Assembly (NCBI GenBank): GCA_021323595.1 | Contig: JAJPKR010000054.1 | Location: 1-45,886, forward strand | Length of the DNA stretch: 45,886 nt | Direction: 5' to 3' | DNA from: Terriglobia bacterium | GTDB taxonomy: Bacteria; Acidobacteriota; Terriglobia; Terriglobales; SCQP01 | Shown here: one piece after another, positions 18,682 through 22,524 of the stretch | Numbering within the stretch: position 1 is the first letter of the stretch | How the letters are laid out: every line of letters begins with the position of its first letter | Translations under genes and position numbers: made by a program | The notes under the pieces: generated by a model | The model's input: only the letters and a program-made list of their open reading frames with translations | Database searches by the model: none | Told to the model about the DNA's origin: nothing

Positions 18682-19587
18682 TCACGGGCGCTTGATGAAG
18701 CTGCCGTCGCGCAGCTCGGCGTAGGCCTGCCGCAGCTCTTCCTGCGTGTTCATCACGATCGGCCCGTACCAGGCGACCGGCTCCTCGATCGGCCTGCCGG
18801 AAACCAGCAGGAAGCGGATGCCCTCCTCGCCCGCCCGCACCGTTATTTCATCGCCGCGGTCGAAGAGCACCAGCGAGTGATTGCGGGCATCATAGGCGGG
18901 CGTAGCGGCGGGGTCCACTGCCGACTCGGTGAGCACGGCACGCGGCTCCGAGGCATCGCGGAACGAGCCGCTGCCGGCAAAGACATAGGCGAAGGCGTTG
19001 CGGGTGGTCTCGACCCGCAGGCGCTTGCGCCGCCCCGGCGGGACGGCAATATCGAGGTAGCTGGGATCGGCAGCCACGCCCTCGACCGGCCCCCGCCGGC
19101 CCCAGAACTCGCCGCAGATCACGCGTGCGCGCGTGCCGTCGTCGTCGGTCACTTCGGGGATGGCGGCCGCGGGAACGTCCTGGTAGCGCGGCGCGGTCAT
19201 CTTCAGTGCCGCCGGCAGGTTGGCCCAGAGCTGGAAGCCGTGCATTCGTCCCTGCGGATCGCCCTTGGGCATCTCTTGGTGCAAAATTCCGCTGCCCGCC
19301 GTCATCCACTGCACGTCGCCGGCGCTCATCTTGCCCTGATTGCCGAGACTGTCGCCGTGCTCGACTGAGCCGGCCAGGACGTAGGTGATCGTTTCGATCC
19401 CCCGGTGCGGGTGCCAGGGGAAGCCGGCCAGATAGTCGGCGGGATTCTCATTGCGGAAGTCGTCGAGCAGGAGAAACGGGTCGAAATCCTTGGTTTTGCC
19501 GAAGCCGAAGGCGCGCTGGAGTTTCACACCGGCGCCTTCGAGCGTCGGCTTCGGCTGAATGATCTGGCGGACGGGCCGCAGTGACAT
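18682..19587 (-). CDS. Pirin family protein
   Basis: The product is 301 residues from ATG 19587, with an AAAGGA ribosome site 6 bases upstream. It is a two-domain cupin of the pirin family: FPWHPHRGIETITYVLAGSV holds His 59 and His 61, and GDVQWMTAGSGILHQEMP adds His 103 and Glu 105, the four metal ligands. The C-terminal pirin domain ends LRDGSFIKRP. Bacterial pirins such as E. coli YhhW have quercetin dioxygenase activity in vitro and others bind metabolic enzymes; the in vivo role is usually a redox or electrophile response. It lies 50 bases downstream of yceI and likely shares its promoter and MarR-type operator. A second, truncated copy of its tail exists at 7629. Confidence 0.92.
   Translation of the reverse strand: MSLRPVRQIIQPKPTLEGAGVKLQRAFGFGKTKDFDPFLLLDDFRNENPADYLAGFPWHPHRGIETITYVLAGSVEHGDSLGNQGKMSAGDVQWMTAGSGILHQEMPKGDPQGRMHGFQLWANLPAALKMTAPRYQDVPAAAIPEVTDDDGTRARVICGEFWGRRGPVEGVAADPSYLDIAVPPGRRKRLRVETTRNAFAYVFAGSGSFRDASEPRAVLTESAVDPAATPAYDARNHSLVLFDRGDEITVRAGEEGIRFLLVSGRPIEEPVAWYGPIVMNTQEELRQAYAELRDGSFIKRP
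18684..18775. repeat. Right copy of the 92-bp pirin-tail direct repeat
   Basis: This copy lies inside the intact pirin gene, at its 3' end. It matches 7631-7722 at 85 of 92 positions, same orientation. Differences include both synonymous changes and changes such as Met/Trp and Ala/Thr, so the left copy has drifted since duplication. Confidence 0.85.
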
Positions 19588-19637
19588 GGCATTGTCCTTT
19601 CGCGGTACGCGCCAGCGGGGCGCGCACCGCGGGTGCA

Positions 19638-20192
19638 TCAGGCTTTGACGAATTCGAGTTCCAGCGTGATGGCGACCTCGTCGCCGATCAAGACCCCGCC
19701 GGTTTCCAGGACGGTGTTCCAGGTGAGGCCGAAGTCCTTGCGATTGATCTTCGCCGTCGCGGAAATCCCGATGCGCAAGCCGCCCCAGGGATCCCGGCCC
19801 GGGGGCGTGGGGCCTTCGACCGCGAAGACCACGCGGCGCGTTACGCCGTGAATCGTCAAATCGCCGGCGACGCTGAGCTGGCCTTCGCCCGTGCGGCGGA
19901 CTTCCGTGGAGCGGAACGTGAGCCGGGGAAATTTCTCCACGTCGAAGAAATCGGCGCTCTTCAGGTGCGCGTCGCGCTGCGGGTCGCGGGTGTTGATCGT
20001 GGCCGCCTCGATCGTGGCTTCGACGCGCGACCGGGTGATATCGCTTTCGTCCAGCGTCAACTGGGCGGCGAGGCCGGTGAAGTGACCCTTGACCGAGGTC
20101 ATCATCATGTGCCGCACCTTGAATTCGGCCACCGAGTGCGCGGGGTCGAGGTTCCATGTCGAGACCTGCGGCGCAGGAATGGGTGAAGTCAT
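19638..20192 (-). CDS. YceI family protein
   Basis: The product is 184 residues. Landmarks of the YceI lipocalin-like fold are STWNLDPAHSVAEFKVRHMM, TVKGHF-like MTSVKGHFTGLAAQL, the INTRDPQRDAHLKSADFFDV motif and GDLTIHGVTRRV. Family members bind isoprenoid-type lipids. No signal peptide is visible, so a cytoplasmic location is likely, unlike E. coli YceI. The start at ATG 20192 has a strong AAAGGAGA site six bases before it. The upstream 75-base gap to marR contains a near-palindrome (20235-20254) resembling the one in the marR promoter, so I infer control by that regulator. Pirin follows in the same direction. Confidence 0.92.
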   Translation of the reverse strand: MTSPIPAPQVSTWNLDPAHSVAEFKVRHMMMTSVKGHFTGLAAQLTLDESDITRSRVEATIEAATINTRDPQRDAHLKSADFFDVEKFPRLTFRSTEVRRTGEGQLSVAGDLTIHGVTRRVVFAVEGPTPPGRDPWGGLRIGISATAKINRKDFGLTWNTVLETGGVLIGDEVAITLELEFVKA

Positions 20193-20234
20193 GAGATCGT
20201 CTCCTTTCGGCACTTCCTTGGATGCATTTCGTGG

Positions 20235-20254
20235 ATAATCGTTGCAACAAATAT
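20235..20254. promoter_or_regulatory. Putative MarR operator upstream of yceI-pirin
   Basis: ATAATCGTTGCAACAAATAT is a 20-bp near-palindrome with core GTTGCAAC. It agrees at 15 of 20 positions with the palindrome inside the marR promoter, including both outer ATA/TAT arms and the inner TCGTT/AAC. It sits 43 bases before the yceI start, a suitable place for a repressor. Confidence 0.65.
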
Positions 20255-20267
20255 TTGGCCCGCCGGG

Positions 20268-20720
20268 CTAGCCGGGCTGGCGGATGGCGCGCAGCAGCGC
20301 CGCCAGCGCGCGCAGCCGCGGCCGGCCGAGATGGCCGAGCTGGCGGCGGTGGGCGGCGCGCACGGGCGCGTCGAGCCGCGCCAACAGCGCCAAGCCGCGG
20401 GCGGTGATCCGGGTGGTGACGGTGCGCCGGTCAGCGGGCTCGCGGCGGCGGGCGATGAGCCCGCGCCGGGCCAGGCGGTCGAGCAAGCGGGTGATGTCGG
20501 GATCGCGGGTGATCATACGGCCGGCGATCTCGCCGCAGGGCAGGCCGCTGGGCGCACCGCGCAGGATACGGAGCACGTTGTACTGCGCCGGGGAAAGCCC
20601 GGCGGTCTTGAAGACCTCCGCCAGCCCGCGGCTAAGCAGGTCGGTCGTGCGCAGCAGCTCGAGGTACGCCGCCTCTTCCGCGGCCCCTGCCACTGCCGCC
20701 CGGGAAGCCTTGCCCGCCAC
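20268..20720 (-). CDS. MarR family transcriptional regulator
   Basis: The product is 150 residues from GTG 20720. It has a winged helix-turn-helix: LSPAQYNVLRILRGAPSGLP, the recognition region IAGRMITRDPDITRLLDRLA, and the wing RRGLIARRREPADRRTVTTR, flanked by dimerisation helices. No ATG is available, and the frame continues upstream through the promoter, so GTG 20720 is chosen because it follows the -10 box by six bases, implying a leaderless message. A single Cys (GLPCGEI) could be redox-active. Operators before itself and before yceI-pirin suggest autoregulation and control of those two genes, consistent with an electrophile or oxidant response; the ligand is unknown. Confidence 0.85.
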   Translation of the reverse strand: MAGKASRAAVAGAAEEAAYLELLRTTDLLSRGLAEVFKTAGLSPAQYNVLRILRGAPSGLPCGEIAGRMITRDPDITRLLDRLARRGLIARRREPADRRTVTTRITARGLALLARLDAPVRAAHRRQLGHLGRPRLRALAALLRAIRQPG

Positions 20721-20726
20721 GCCTAC

Positions 20727-20756
20727 AGAATATTCGTTATAACGACTATTTGTCAA
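20727..20756 (-). promoter_or_regulatory. marR promoter with embedded palindromic operator
   Basis: On the minus strand TTGACA (20751-20756) and TATTCT (20727-20732) are spaced 18 bases. Between and overlapping them lies ATATTCGTTATAACGACTAT on the plus strand (20730-20749), whose core TCGTTATAACGA (20734-20745) is a perfect 12-bp palindrome. A dimer bound here would block RNA polymerase, as in autoregulated MarR genes. Confidence 0.75.
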
Positions 20757-20902: not shown

Positions 20903-22123
20903 TCAGACGACGAGCAGCAGGCCCTCGCGAACCAGGCGGCGGGCCAGCGTCAATTGGCCGCCGGGGTCGAGACCGGGCAGGTCGCGCGGCCGGAACCGCG
21001 GTTGCGCCAGCGCGAAGCGCGCGGCGGGCGCGGCGGCGGCGGGCACGGTGATCGCGCGGCCGGGGATTTCCAGGGTCAATCCGCCGTCCGCCCGCGTTTG
21101 GCAGCGCGGCGCCAGCCCGGGCCGCCGCGCCAGCCAACTGGCCGGCTGGAGATCGCGAGCCGCCTGCAGTTGCGCCAACTGGCCGCGCCAGGAGGGTGGG
21201 CGGGCCGCCTCGAGGTGCGAGGCGAAGAGCTCGAGCGCCGCTTCGGCGTCGAGATGCGGTTCGGCACGGCGCCAGAGCTCGCGCAGGGTTTCGGCGACGG
21301 CACGCCGGTCAAAATCGGGGCGTGCGAAGCCCGGCGGCAGGGCCTTGCGCAGCGCCGCGTCGCGCAAGCAGGCGCCCGCCAGCGCTTCGAACAGCAGATC
21401 CGCCCAGGTCGTGCGCAGCACGCCCGCCGTGATGTGCAGCGAGACTTCGTCGCTCGCCTGGGCTTCGTGCGCCAGGCCGCGCGGCAGGTAGGCCACGTCG
21501 CCGGGCGCGAGTTCGAACTCCAAGGACACCGGGCCGAGCGCGTCGCGCGCCGGGTCAAACTCCTGCCCCGCCAGCGGCGACTCGATGGGCGTCCCGAAGA
21601 GCGTCCAATGCTTGCTGCCGGCGATCTGCAGGACGAAGACGTCGTGGGTGTCGTAGTGCGCTTTGGCGCCTTGCGTGTTCGGCGGAGTGAGATAGACGTT
21701 GGTCTGGCAGGGGCAGGAAAACTCGGCTTCGAGGCCGCGGCAAAAATCTCCCAGAGCCGGCACCACCTCGTCCAGGTAGGCCATCATGACCGTCGCGCCC
21801 GTGTCGAAGAGCGCGAAAACCCGCGCCACATCGAGGCGGTCGTCGTCGAAGGTGTAGTCGTCGCCGCTAAGTTCGCGGCGGGCATCCTTGAGCGTGATGT
21901 CGGGAAAGCGGCGGTCGAGCGTGGTAAGGACGCGATCAGCTTCGTCGAGCGAAAAGAGCCGCTCGAAGTAGCCGGGCTGGCCGCGGCGCACGACCAGCGG
22001 TCCGCGCTCCCAAATCTCGCCAAAAAATTCCGCGCGCGTCCGCGGCGCCAGCAGCCACTCCAACGTCGAGCCGCCGGCAACCTCGGGCGCCAACCGCGCG
22101 TGCGCGGGCCGGGAAGAGGACAT
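20903..22123 (-). CDS. JmjC/cupin-4 family Fe(II)/2-oxoglutarate oxygenase
   Basis: The product is 406 residues. The double-stranded beta-helix core carries AHYDTHDVFVLQIAGSKHW with the metal-binding His 156 and Asp 158 (HxD), and the distal His 219 in AYLPRGLAHEA. This layout, with an N-terminal EFFGEIWERGPLVVRRG segment and a C-terminal helical/winged region, matches the cupin-4 / ROX family, whose characterised members hydroxylate Arg or His of ribosomal proteins. The gene follows a small Tat-signal, lysine-rich protein gene by 45 bases and appears to share its promoter, so that protein could be the substrate; this is inference. The C-terminal third is Ala/Arg/Leu-rich and less conserved to my eye. 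Confidence 0.85.
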   Translation of the reverse strand: MSSSRPAHARLAPEVAGGSTLEWLLAPRTRAEFFGEIWERGPLVVRRGQPGYFERLFSLDEADRVLTTLDRRFPDITLKDARRELSGDDYTFDDDRLDVARVFALFDTGATVMMAYLDEVVPALGDFCRGLEAEFSCPCQTNVYLTPPNTQGAKAHYDTHDVFVLQIAGSKHWTLFGTPIESPLAGQEFDPARDALGPVSLEFELAPGDVAYLPRGLAHEAQASDEVSLHITAGVLRTTWADLLFEALAGACLRDAALRKALPPGFARPDFDRRAVAETLRELWRRAEPHLDAEAALELFASHLEAARPPSWRGQLAQLQAARDLQPASWLARRPGLAPRCQTRADGGLTLEIPGRAITVPAAAAPAARFALAQPRFRPRDLPGLDPGGQLTLARRLVREGLLLVV

Positions 22124-22168
22124 CGCAGGGCGCCGGCGGCTCAGCCAAGCCGCCGGCTTGGCAGACGA

Positions 22169-22453
22169 TTAATGATCGGGATCGGAAGCCTTGGGCTTGG
22201 CCGCCTTCTTCGCGTGCTTCGATCCTTTGGCCGCGTGCTTTTGGGACTTCTTGTTGTTTTTGGGCTTTTTCGCGTCGGGATCGCTCTGCAGGGAACTAGC
22301 CGAAGCCGCGCGTGCCGAAGCCACGACGGCAGCGGCACCCACGAACATCGTCCCTACTGCGGTCAGAAACGAGCGGCGAGGCAAGCGGCGCTCGGTGGAA
22401 ATCTGCTCATCCGTCAGCGACGCCGACGGCAGCTTAAAATCTTGATCGCTCAT
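22169..22453 (-). CDS. Small Tat-exported lysine-rich protein
   Basis: The product is 94 residues. Residues 23-50 form a twin-arginine signal (LPRRSFLTAVGTMFVGAAAV) ending ASARAASAS. The mature part, about 40 residues, is almost free of hydrophobic residues and has 12 lysines, bracketed by SDPD at both ends, with KHAAKGSKHAKKAAK between. The N-terminal 20 residues before the signal are acidic and could act as a leader. AGGAG lies about 11 bases before ATG 22453, and a promoter is visible at 22496-22524. Immediately downstream is a JmjC-like oxygenase gene. I do not recognise a family; options are a modified peptide, a cell-wall or DNA-binding polycation, or a metal-binding protein. Confidence 0.75.
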   Translation of the reverse strand: MSDQDFKLPSASLTDEQISTERRLPRRSFLTAVGTMFVGAAAVVASARAASASSLQSDPDAKKPKNNKKSQKHAAKGSKHAKKAAKPKASDPDH

Positions 22454-22495
22454 GGTGTAATCAGCTCCTACGGCAACACTGCCGAATCCTGGATC

Positions 22496-22524
22496 CTTAT
22501 ATCACTGCCCTGGCACCAAAACAA
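22496..22524 (-). promoter_or_regulatory. Promoter of the Tat-peptide/oxygenase unit
   Basis: Minus-strand TTGTTT (22519-22524) and TATAAG (22496-22501) are spaced 17 bases, with about 35 untranslated bases before ATG 22453. There is no competing promoter between the small gene and the oxygenase gene, which supports co-transcription. Confidence 0.55.

What the first reader, a model, noticed from the sequence alone, without database searches (positions are those of the whole stretch)
20903..22524. Tiny Tat-exported lysine-rich protein paired with a JmjC/cupin-4 oxygenase: possible new protein-hydroxylation system
A promoter (22496-22524) drives a 94-residue protein with a Tat signal and a roughly 40-residue tail holding 12 lysines bracketed by two SDPD tetrapeptides. 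Forty-five bases later comes an Fe(II)/2OG oxygenase with intact HxD...H (His 156, Asp 158, His 219). Known cupin-4 enzymes hydroxylate basic or His-containing protein segments. A Tat substrate stays folded in the cytoplasm, leaving time for modification before export. The pairing suggests that the oxygenase modifies the tail (Lys, His or Asn) before export, a RiPP-like logic. The enzyme family is established; the pairing as substrate and enzyme is inference.
Basis: partly seen in the sequence, partly recalled or inferred. Interest (0 to 1): 0.62.

Follow-up and report, generated by a model that had tools for sequence, protein, structure and literature searches.

The report
Exported Asp-motif peptide with its hydroxylase
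Two adjacent genes encode a small exported protein and an iron-dependent oxygen-adding enzyme that most likely modifies it before export; the same pairing, held together by a shared recognition tag and aspartate motifs rather than by the lysines first noticed, recurs in at least three bacterial phyla and appears to be an unnamed family of modified exported peptides.

Summary
In detail: a 94-aa Tat protein (22453-22169, -) and, 45 bp on, a 406-aa JmjC_2/cupin-4 oxygenase (22123-20903, -) with His156-Asp158-His219. Only the promoter is weak. The pairing is not chance: in the window's own phylum 12 of 16 genomes with the oxygenase carry the small Tat gene beside it, with no orphan copies found; in Pseudomonadota 14 of 14 readable loci do; Actinomycetota have a Tat-less version. 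Conserved are an N-terminal tag (LTDExI), the twin arginines and D-x-D motifs (SDPD here). The lysines are not: most cores have none. The oxygenase folds like NO66 and ends in a winged helix with the element order of RiPP recognition elements. Best reading: a RiPP-like cassette whose oxygenase binds the tag and hydroxylates the Asp motifs before Tat export. Enzyme-substrate pairing is strongly supported; Asp as target is inferred; Lys/His/Asn are not supported as the general target. Relatives (BipG, a JmjC ornithine hydroxylase; RRE-bearing JmjC proteins) are published, but I found no description of this precursor family. New variant of a known kind.

The parts
22169..22453 (-). Small Tat-exported precursor-like protein, 94 aa
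   Evidence: ORF and motif; homologue beside the oxygenase in G040 and others
22394..22417 (-). Leader motif L13-T-D-E-Q-I-S-T20, the proposed recognition tag
   Evidence: L13 invariant, D15 and I18 at least 90% in alignment A2; the same LTDExI tag in Tat-less actinobacterial peptides
22298..22378 (-). Twin-arginine signal (R26-R27-S-F-L), hydrophobic region and A-x-A sites; cleavage near residue 49 or 52
   Evidence: Sequence; R26 invariant and R27 at least 90% in A2; TatC in the genome
22172..22297 (-). Core, residues 53-94: Lys-rich spacer between two SDPD motifs; predicted disordered
22274..22285 (-). SDPD motif 1 (residues 57-60)
   Evidence: D-x-D in 29 of 29 Tat-type cores
22175..22186 (-). 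SDPD motif 2 (residues 90-93)
22132..22157 (-). 11-bp G+C-rich hairpin between the two genes, without a T run
   Evidence: 61-nt stretch folds at -28.9 kcal/mol, z -4.0; not constant in relatives
20903..22123 (-). JmjC_2 (cupin-4) Fe(II)/2OG oxygenase, 406 aa
   Evidence: Pfam PF08007; model pLDDT 92.3; NO66 Z 33, 390 residues aligned
21650..21658 (-). Iron-binding His156-x-Asp158
   Evidence: Invariant in A1 and A3
21467..21469 (-). Iron-binding His219
   Evidence: Invariant in A1 and A3
20906..21133 (-). C-terminal winged-helix domain (residues 331-406), candidate leader-binding, RRE-like
   Evidence: Strands 331-360 then helices 362-399; LDxxGKLxLxRRLxREGLL motif conserved in leader-bearing pairs

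Best explanation
A two-gene RiPP-like cassette. The small protein is a precursor: residues 1-22 carry a recognition tag (LTDEQI), next comes a Tat signal, then a disordered core with two D-x-D (SDPD) motifs. The oxygenase holds the tag with its C-terminal winged-helix (RRE-like) domain and uses Fe(II), O2 and 2-oxoglutarate to hydroxylate the core before Tat carries it out of the cytoplasm. The most likely modified residues are the Asp of the D-x-D motifs (beta-hydroxy-Asp). Hydroxylated acidic motifs would suit metal binding outside the cytoplasm. Shown here: both genes, the intact active site, the fold, the conserved pairing, the shared tag and motifs. Inferred: that the small protein is the substrate, that the winged helix binds the tag, that Asp is the residue, and the metal-binding role (a guess).
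For: Pairing: among 60 relatives the two genes are found together in G000 and G040 and as strong homologues in no other. In the own phylum 16 of 396 genomes have the oxygenase; 12 of them have the small Tat gene beside it; the small-protein profile gives 11 strong hits in 392 genomes (E <= 4e-23), all beside the oxygenase, then a gap to 5e-6, which is generic Tat signals. Pseudomonadota: 14 of 14 loci with enough flank. Order and strand vary (head-to-head in G245, G204, G956 and G981), so this is not just one inherited operon. Tree of 92 enzymes: 23 of 25 in the window's clade and 22 of 26 in the actinobacterial clade are paired, 0 of 28 in the ROX-like clade; label changes 8 against 40.9 shuffled. 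Tag. D-x-D exceeds composition-matched shuffles (152 against a mean of 74, maximum 93). RiPP context: a graspetide-ligase relative lies next to the G040 pair (TIGR04187, E 1.7e-45, below its curated cut-off). JmjC enzymes of this kind hydroxylate RiPPs (BipG, PMC12707348), and JmjC-RRE proteins lie in RiPP-like contexts (PMC12710340). Active site.
Against: No biochemical data. The window's core is poor: two motifs against up to nine or more repeats elsewhere. Six leaderless members (L093, L094, L097, L098, L100, L101) lack the tag but keep D-x-D. The GPADGG actinobacterial subfamily (L124, L143, L144) lacks D-x-D. Known JmjC RiPP enzymes act on ornithine and ROX enzymes on His or Arg; I know of no JmjC_2 enzyme shown to act on Asp. 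D-x-D was part of the search rule, so its universality is partly circular. None of the 13 same-family genomes searched has the oxygenase.
Confidence: 0.6

Rival explanations
1. Same pairing, but the modified residue in this lineage is Lys (hydroxylysine) in the basic spacer.
For: 28.6% Lys in the window's core and 18.6% in the core of the nearest paired relative G040. JmjC enzymes can hydroxylate Lys (JMJD6, PMC9371714) and ornithine (BipG, PMC12707348).
Against: Lys is in only 6 of 29 Tat-type cores and absent from all f49 cores, although the enzymes belong to one clade.
Confidence: 0.13
2. The oxygenase installs something other than a plain hydroxyl, such as a cross-link or an oxidised Asp derivative.
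For: 2OG-dependent macrocyclisation in RiPPs is cited in PMC12710340 (reference 45), and conversion of hydroxy-Asp to aminomalonate is described in a graspetide cluster (cited in PMC13097080). G040 adds an ATP-grasp enzyme of the graspetide-ligase superfamily.
Against: The window genome has no such ATP-grasp. Known JmjC RiPP enzymes (BipG, PbsQ) are hydroxylases.
Confidence: 0.13
3. The small protein is not a substrate but a partner, regulator or carrier, and the oxygenase acts on something else.
For: No direct evidence of modification; the core sequence is very variable.
Against: Shared leader tag across phyla with and without Tat, tandem core repeats up to nine or more copies, and one to three small genes per oxygenase look like RiPP precursors.
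Confidence: 0.08
4. A housekeeping ribosomal oxygenase (ROX: L16 Arg or L27a/L8 His hydroxylase) with an unrelated neighbour.
For: Fold and sequence are closest to NO66 and MINA53 among solved structures.
Against: The ROX-like clade is separate and has 0 of 28 pairings. Ser421 of NO66 is Gly here. Only 16 of 396 genomes of the phylum have it, unlike a housekeeping gene.
Confidence: 0.04

Closest known systems
BipG / BpmG / PbsQ, JmjC (cupin-like) ornithine hydroxylases of biphenomycin-type RiPPs (PMC12707348, PMC12257519)
   Same: A JmjC Fe(II)/2OG enzyme that hydroxylates a ribosomal precursor encoded beside it.
   Different: Their substrate is Orn made from Arg in an F-R-F core, in multi-enzyme clusters, and no Tat signal is mentioned in the passages read. 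Here one enzyme and Asp-motif cores. Direct sequence comparison with BipG was not made.
JmjC (PF08007)-RRE fusions noted in the RRE survey (PMC12710340)
   Same: JmjC domain with a strand-strand-strand-helix-helix-helix domain; bacterial homologues in RiPP-like contexts.
   Different: That paper names no precursor family, tag or Tat signal for them, in the text I read.
Bufferins and other MNIO RiPPs with signal peptides (PMC12452194)
   Same: RiPP precursors carrying an N-terminal signal peptide and modified by a non-haem iron enzyme before export.
   Different: Sec, not Tat; Cys motifs, not D-x-D; MNIO plus DUF2063 partner, not JmjC_2.
Ribosomal oxygenases NO66, MINA53, YcfD/ROXA
   Same: Full-length fold including the C-terminal winged helix, HxD...H.
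   Different: No paired small gene in the ROX-like clade; substrate-binding Ser421 replaced by Gly.
Graspetides (MvdC/MvdD, TIGR04187 ATP-grasp ligases)
   Same: G040's cassette has an adjacent ATP-grasp of this superfamily and a core rich in Asp and Lys.
   Different: No ATP-grasp homologue in the window's genome.

Membership tests
JmjC_2 (cupin-4) Fe(II)/2OG oxygenase | Matches PF08007 above its cut-off | tested here: met
   86.2 bits against a cut-off of 22
JmjC_2 (cupin-4) Fe(II)/2OG oxygenase | HxD...H iron triad | tested here: met
   His156, Asp158, His219 invariant in A1 and A3
JmjC_2 (cupin-4) Fe(II)/2OG oxygenase | Uses 2OG and O2 to hydroxylate | not testable with these tools
   No assay possible; Tyr144 and Lys171, at the positions I recall as 2OG-binding in NO66, are invariant (assignment from memory)
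Ribosomal oxygenase (NO66/MINA53/ROXA), as substrate class | His-binding Ser (NO66 Ser421 / MINA53 Ser257) | tested here: not met
   Gly234 in the window, at least 90% conserved in the paired family
Ribosomal oxygenase (NO66/MINA53/ROXA), as substrate class | Falls in the ROX-like clade | tested here: not met
   Separate from the 28-row ROX-like side (branch 100/99)
Tat substrate | Twin-arginine motif, hydrophobic region, A-x-A | tested here: met
   PRRSFLTAVG...ASARAASAS; R26 invariant and R27 at least 90% conserved in A2; export itself not tested
RiPP cassette | Small precursor gene conserved beside a peptide-modifying enzyme | tested here: met
RiPP cassette | Conserved leader distinct from a variable core | tested here: met
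   LTDExI tag with unlike cores across phyla; six leaderless exceptions
RiPP cassette | Core is post-translationally modified | not testable with these tools
   Needs mass spectrometry
RiPP recognition element (RRE) | Winged helix with three strands then three helices that binds the leader | tested here: inconclusive
   Order of elements fits, motif tracks the leader, but NO66 has a similar domain and binding was not tested
Graspetide | ATP-grasp macrocyclase in the genome | tested here: not met
   No match to the G040 ATP-grasp in G000
Bufferin / MNIO RiPP | MNIO enzyme and Cys motifs | tested here: not met
   The enzyme is JmjC_2; no Cys in the 94-aa protein

The most novel reading that the evidence does not exclude
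An undescribed class of RiPPs spread over at least three phyla: Tat-exported (or, in Actinomycetota, Tat-less) Asp-repeat proteins, multiply beta-hydroxylated on D-x-D motifs by a dedicated JmjC_2 oxygenase guided by an LTDExI leader, giving periplasmic or surface metal-binding polymers. To my knowledge it would be the first Tat-exported RiPP class and the first JmjC_2 aspartyl hydroxylases.
Probability: 0.4. Interest if true: 0.78.

Novelty: new variant of a known kind. Interest (0 to 1): 0.62.

Why it matters
It would link an orphan branch of the JmjC_2/cupin-4 family, usually filed as ribosomal oxygenases, to genetically encoded, sequence-matched substrates. It would show that the Tat route, not only Sec or ABC exporters, carries RiPP-like products. 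The leader tag and paired genes give a simple handle for genome mining, and the tandem Asp repeats make both the modification and a metal-binding role directly testable in E. coli.

Tried and rejected
Lys as the conserved feature: rejected, most cores have none. Graspetide cassette in the window: rejected, no ATP-grasp homologue in G000. Known family for the small protein: Pfam and NCBIfam give only Tat-signal hits or noise; TIGR02811 (25.1 bits against a cut-off of 48.45) is the shared Tat signal. Housekeeping ROX: rejected. A first automatic pairing rule gave false calls in control loci (L059, L061, L069, L084, which look like shadow frames or other genes); the tree labels were therefore set by reading each case, which is a source of bias. 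G615 (L102) was unpaired, but its contig ends 28 bases after the oxygenase. Streptomyces plasmid JmjC genes (L110-L115) belong to another branch with other peptides. Literature searches for a description of this family found none; the library holds open-access papers only. A paper on Asp beta-hydroxylation in a graspetide cluster (SmaO, cited in PMC13097080) could not be read, so whether SmaO is a JmjC_2 enzyme is unknown to me.

Full report
What is there. On the minus strand lie a 94-codon gene (22453-22169) and, 45 bases on, a 406-codon gene (22123-20903). The first has a good twin-arginine signal (PRRSFLTAVG, hydrophobic stretch, A-x-A) and a 42-residue tail with 12 Lys and two SDPD motifs; two SDPD appear in none of 200,000 shuffles of that tail, and the Ser codons differ. 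The second is a JmjC_2/cupin-4 protein (PF08007, E 1.7e-24) with His156, Asp158 and His219. The upstream neighbour is a malic enzyme and the downstream neighbour a MarR regulator, so the pair looks like a unit of its own. The genome has TatC.

Conserved pairing. Among 60 relatives both genes occur together in the window's genome and in G040, of another family of the same order (46% and 39% identity), and nowhere else as strong homologues. In the own phylum (not named by the tools; my guess is Acidobacteriota) 16 of 396 genomes have the oxygenase at E <= 1e-15. In 12 of these a small Tat gene lies beside it. The four without (G273, G312, G322, G403) are more distant enzymes, and one of them, G312, has an unrelated-looking but very Asp-rich 100-codon frame just upstream (L036 6226-6528). 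The reverse test, a profile of the small proteins over 392 genomes, gave 11 strong matches (E 6e-28 to 4e-23), every one beside an oxygenase; the next best, at 5e-6, are ordinary Tat signals of long proteins. So the small gene was not found without the enzyme, with the caveat that the profile was built from such members.

Beyond the phylum. Starting from a Neorhizobium galegae relative, searches of its class and phylum gave 14 loci with enough flank, and all 14 have one to three small Tat proteins beside the oxygenase. Their cores are mostly tandem repeats such as TDSDTGAYADPAGNGRG or TDSDPNDPAGRGRG. In Actinomycetota 35 of 246 genomes have a relative, and most of the loci read have a 57-130 aa peptide directly before it with the same tag (for example MRVEGLTDEDITTV) and an Asp-rich tail (DGDATDSSDGDA), without a Tat signal. 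A Streptomyces clavuligerus plasmid has a 48-aa version ending ADNDPSDPPIAIADPDPFDPVI. In the tree of 92 enzymes the paired ones gather in two clades, 23 of 25 and 22 of 26, while the ROX-like side has 0 of 28; the labels need 8 changes against 40.9 when shuffled. The labels were set by reading the loci, and the tree's deep bootstrap values are rough.

What is conserved in the small protein. In the alignment of ten Tat-type members, L13 and R26 are invariant and D15, I18, R27 and F29 nearly so: a tag L-T-D-E-x-I, then the twin arginines. The tag persists where Tat is absent, so it is not part of the Tat signal. In the core the shared element is D-x-D (29 of 29 Tat-type cores, 20 of 23 others; observed 152 against a shuffled mean of 74 and maximum of 93 in the Tat type). 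D-x-D was part of the search rule, so its universality is partly circular; its excess over composition is less so. Lys is in 6 of 29, His in 8, Asn in 20. The cores of family f49 (for example GGTDSDGGGDAAAPADSDQATDSDQATDSDSQQ) have no Lys, Arg, His or Asn. AlphaFold finds no structure in the 94-mer (pLDDT 53.6), so the argument that a folded Tat substrate waits for modification has no support.

The enzyme. The model has mean pLDDT 92.3 and matches human NO66 over its whole length (Z 33, 390 residues, rmsd 5.3), then MINA53, B. subtilis YxbC and YcfD/ROXA. The iron triad is invariant. In NO66 and MINA53 a Ser (421/257) holds the substrate His (PMC9994133); in the alignment it falls on Gly234, which is at least 90% conserved in the paired family, so a His substrate is unlikely. 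Residues 331-406 form strands followed by helices, the order that defines RiPP recognition elements in PMC12710340. A C-terminal motif (LDxxGKLxLxRRLxREGLL) is kept in nearly all leader-bearing pairs and is degenerate in the six leaderless members and in the ROX-like clade. This fits leader recognition, but the leaderless members are one clade, so it counts as one event, and L103 has a leader with a degenerate motif.

Mechanism. The best reading is a RiPP-like cassette: the winged helix holds the tag, the JmjC pocket hydroxylates the D-x-D motifs, and Tat exports the product. Supported: pairing, tag, motif, active site, fold. Inferred: that the small protein is the substrate, tag binding by the winged helix, Asp as the residue, and metal binding as the purpose (beta-hydroxy-Asp is a metal ligand in siderophores; own knowledge). 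RiPP context is independently suggested by G040, where an ATP-grasp of the graspetide-ligase superfamily lies directly next to the pair, and by more distant JmjC relatives beside LanM or radical-SAM genes.

Relation to the known. JmjC enzymes that hydroxylate RiPP precursors are published: BipG, BpmG and PbsQ act on ornithine (PMC12707348, PMC12257519). JmjC-RRE proteins in RiPP-like contexts are mentioned in PMC12710340. RiPP precursors with Sec signals are known as bufferins (PMC12452194). Asp beta-hydroxylation in RiPPs is known from other enzymes (PMC13060819, PMC13097080). I found no account of this precursor family, its tag, or a Tat-exported RiPP, within an open-access library only. It is therefore a new variant of a known kind rather than categorically new.

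Noticed in passing
L027 9620-10708 (-), G040: ATP-grasp of the graspetide-ligase superfamily (TIGR04187 E 1.7e-45, below its cut-off) directly next to a Tat precursor with a duplicated SDTGRPPDNKxKSGSDHDKREPGD unit and the JmjC oxygenase: a possible hydroxylase-graspetide hybrid.
   Followed up: partly
window 22132-22157 (-): Strong 11-bp G+C-rich hairpin without a T run between the precursor and enzyme genes (z -4.0); could set the ratio of the two products.
   Followed up: partly
L109 3793-3939 (+): 48-aa Streptomyces clavuligerus plasmid peptide before a JmjC relative: tag LEPDEI and ADNDPSDP/ADPDPFDP core, no Tat.
   Followed up: partly
L124, L143, L144: Actinobacterial subfamily with an N/D-D-D-D-type tag but EGPADGG...HDGGADG repeats and no D-x-D.
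   Followed up: no
L110-L115: Streptomyces plasmid cassettes: regulator, ~50-aa peptide ending DGGGTGKGDGND or close variants, JmjC protein, then in some an aldo/keto reductase; another likely RiPP branch.
   Followed up: no
L036 6226-6528 (+), G312: 100-codon frame of SDGDGTDGDG repeats just upstream of a distant JmjC gene; counted as unpaired in the tree.
   Followed up: no
L035 5791-7055 (+), G130: The oxygenase is split over two frames next to an intact small Tat gene; pseudogene or sequencing error.
   Followed up: no
L028-L032, L039, L040, f49/f46: Small proteins have a Cys after the Tat hydrophobic region (TTACPGG), so they might be Tat lipoproteins.
   Followed up: no
L103 3413-4479: A 114-aa possible nitrile-hydratase-leader-like peptide beside a 236-aa protein with a possible cupin domain, in the same Neorhizobium region; judged by eye only.
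   Followed up: no
window 18682-20720 (-): MarR regulator, YceI and pirin genes in a row downstream, with a TTGACA promoter-like site at 20756; looks ordinary.
   Followed up: partly
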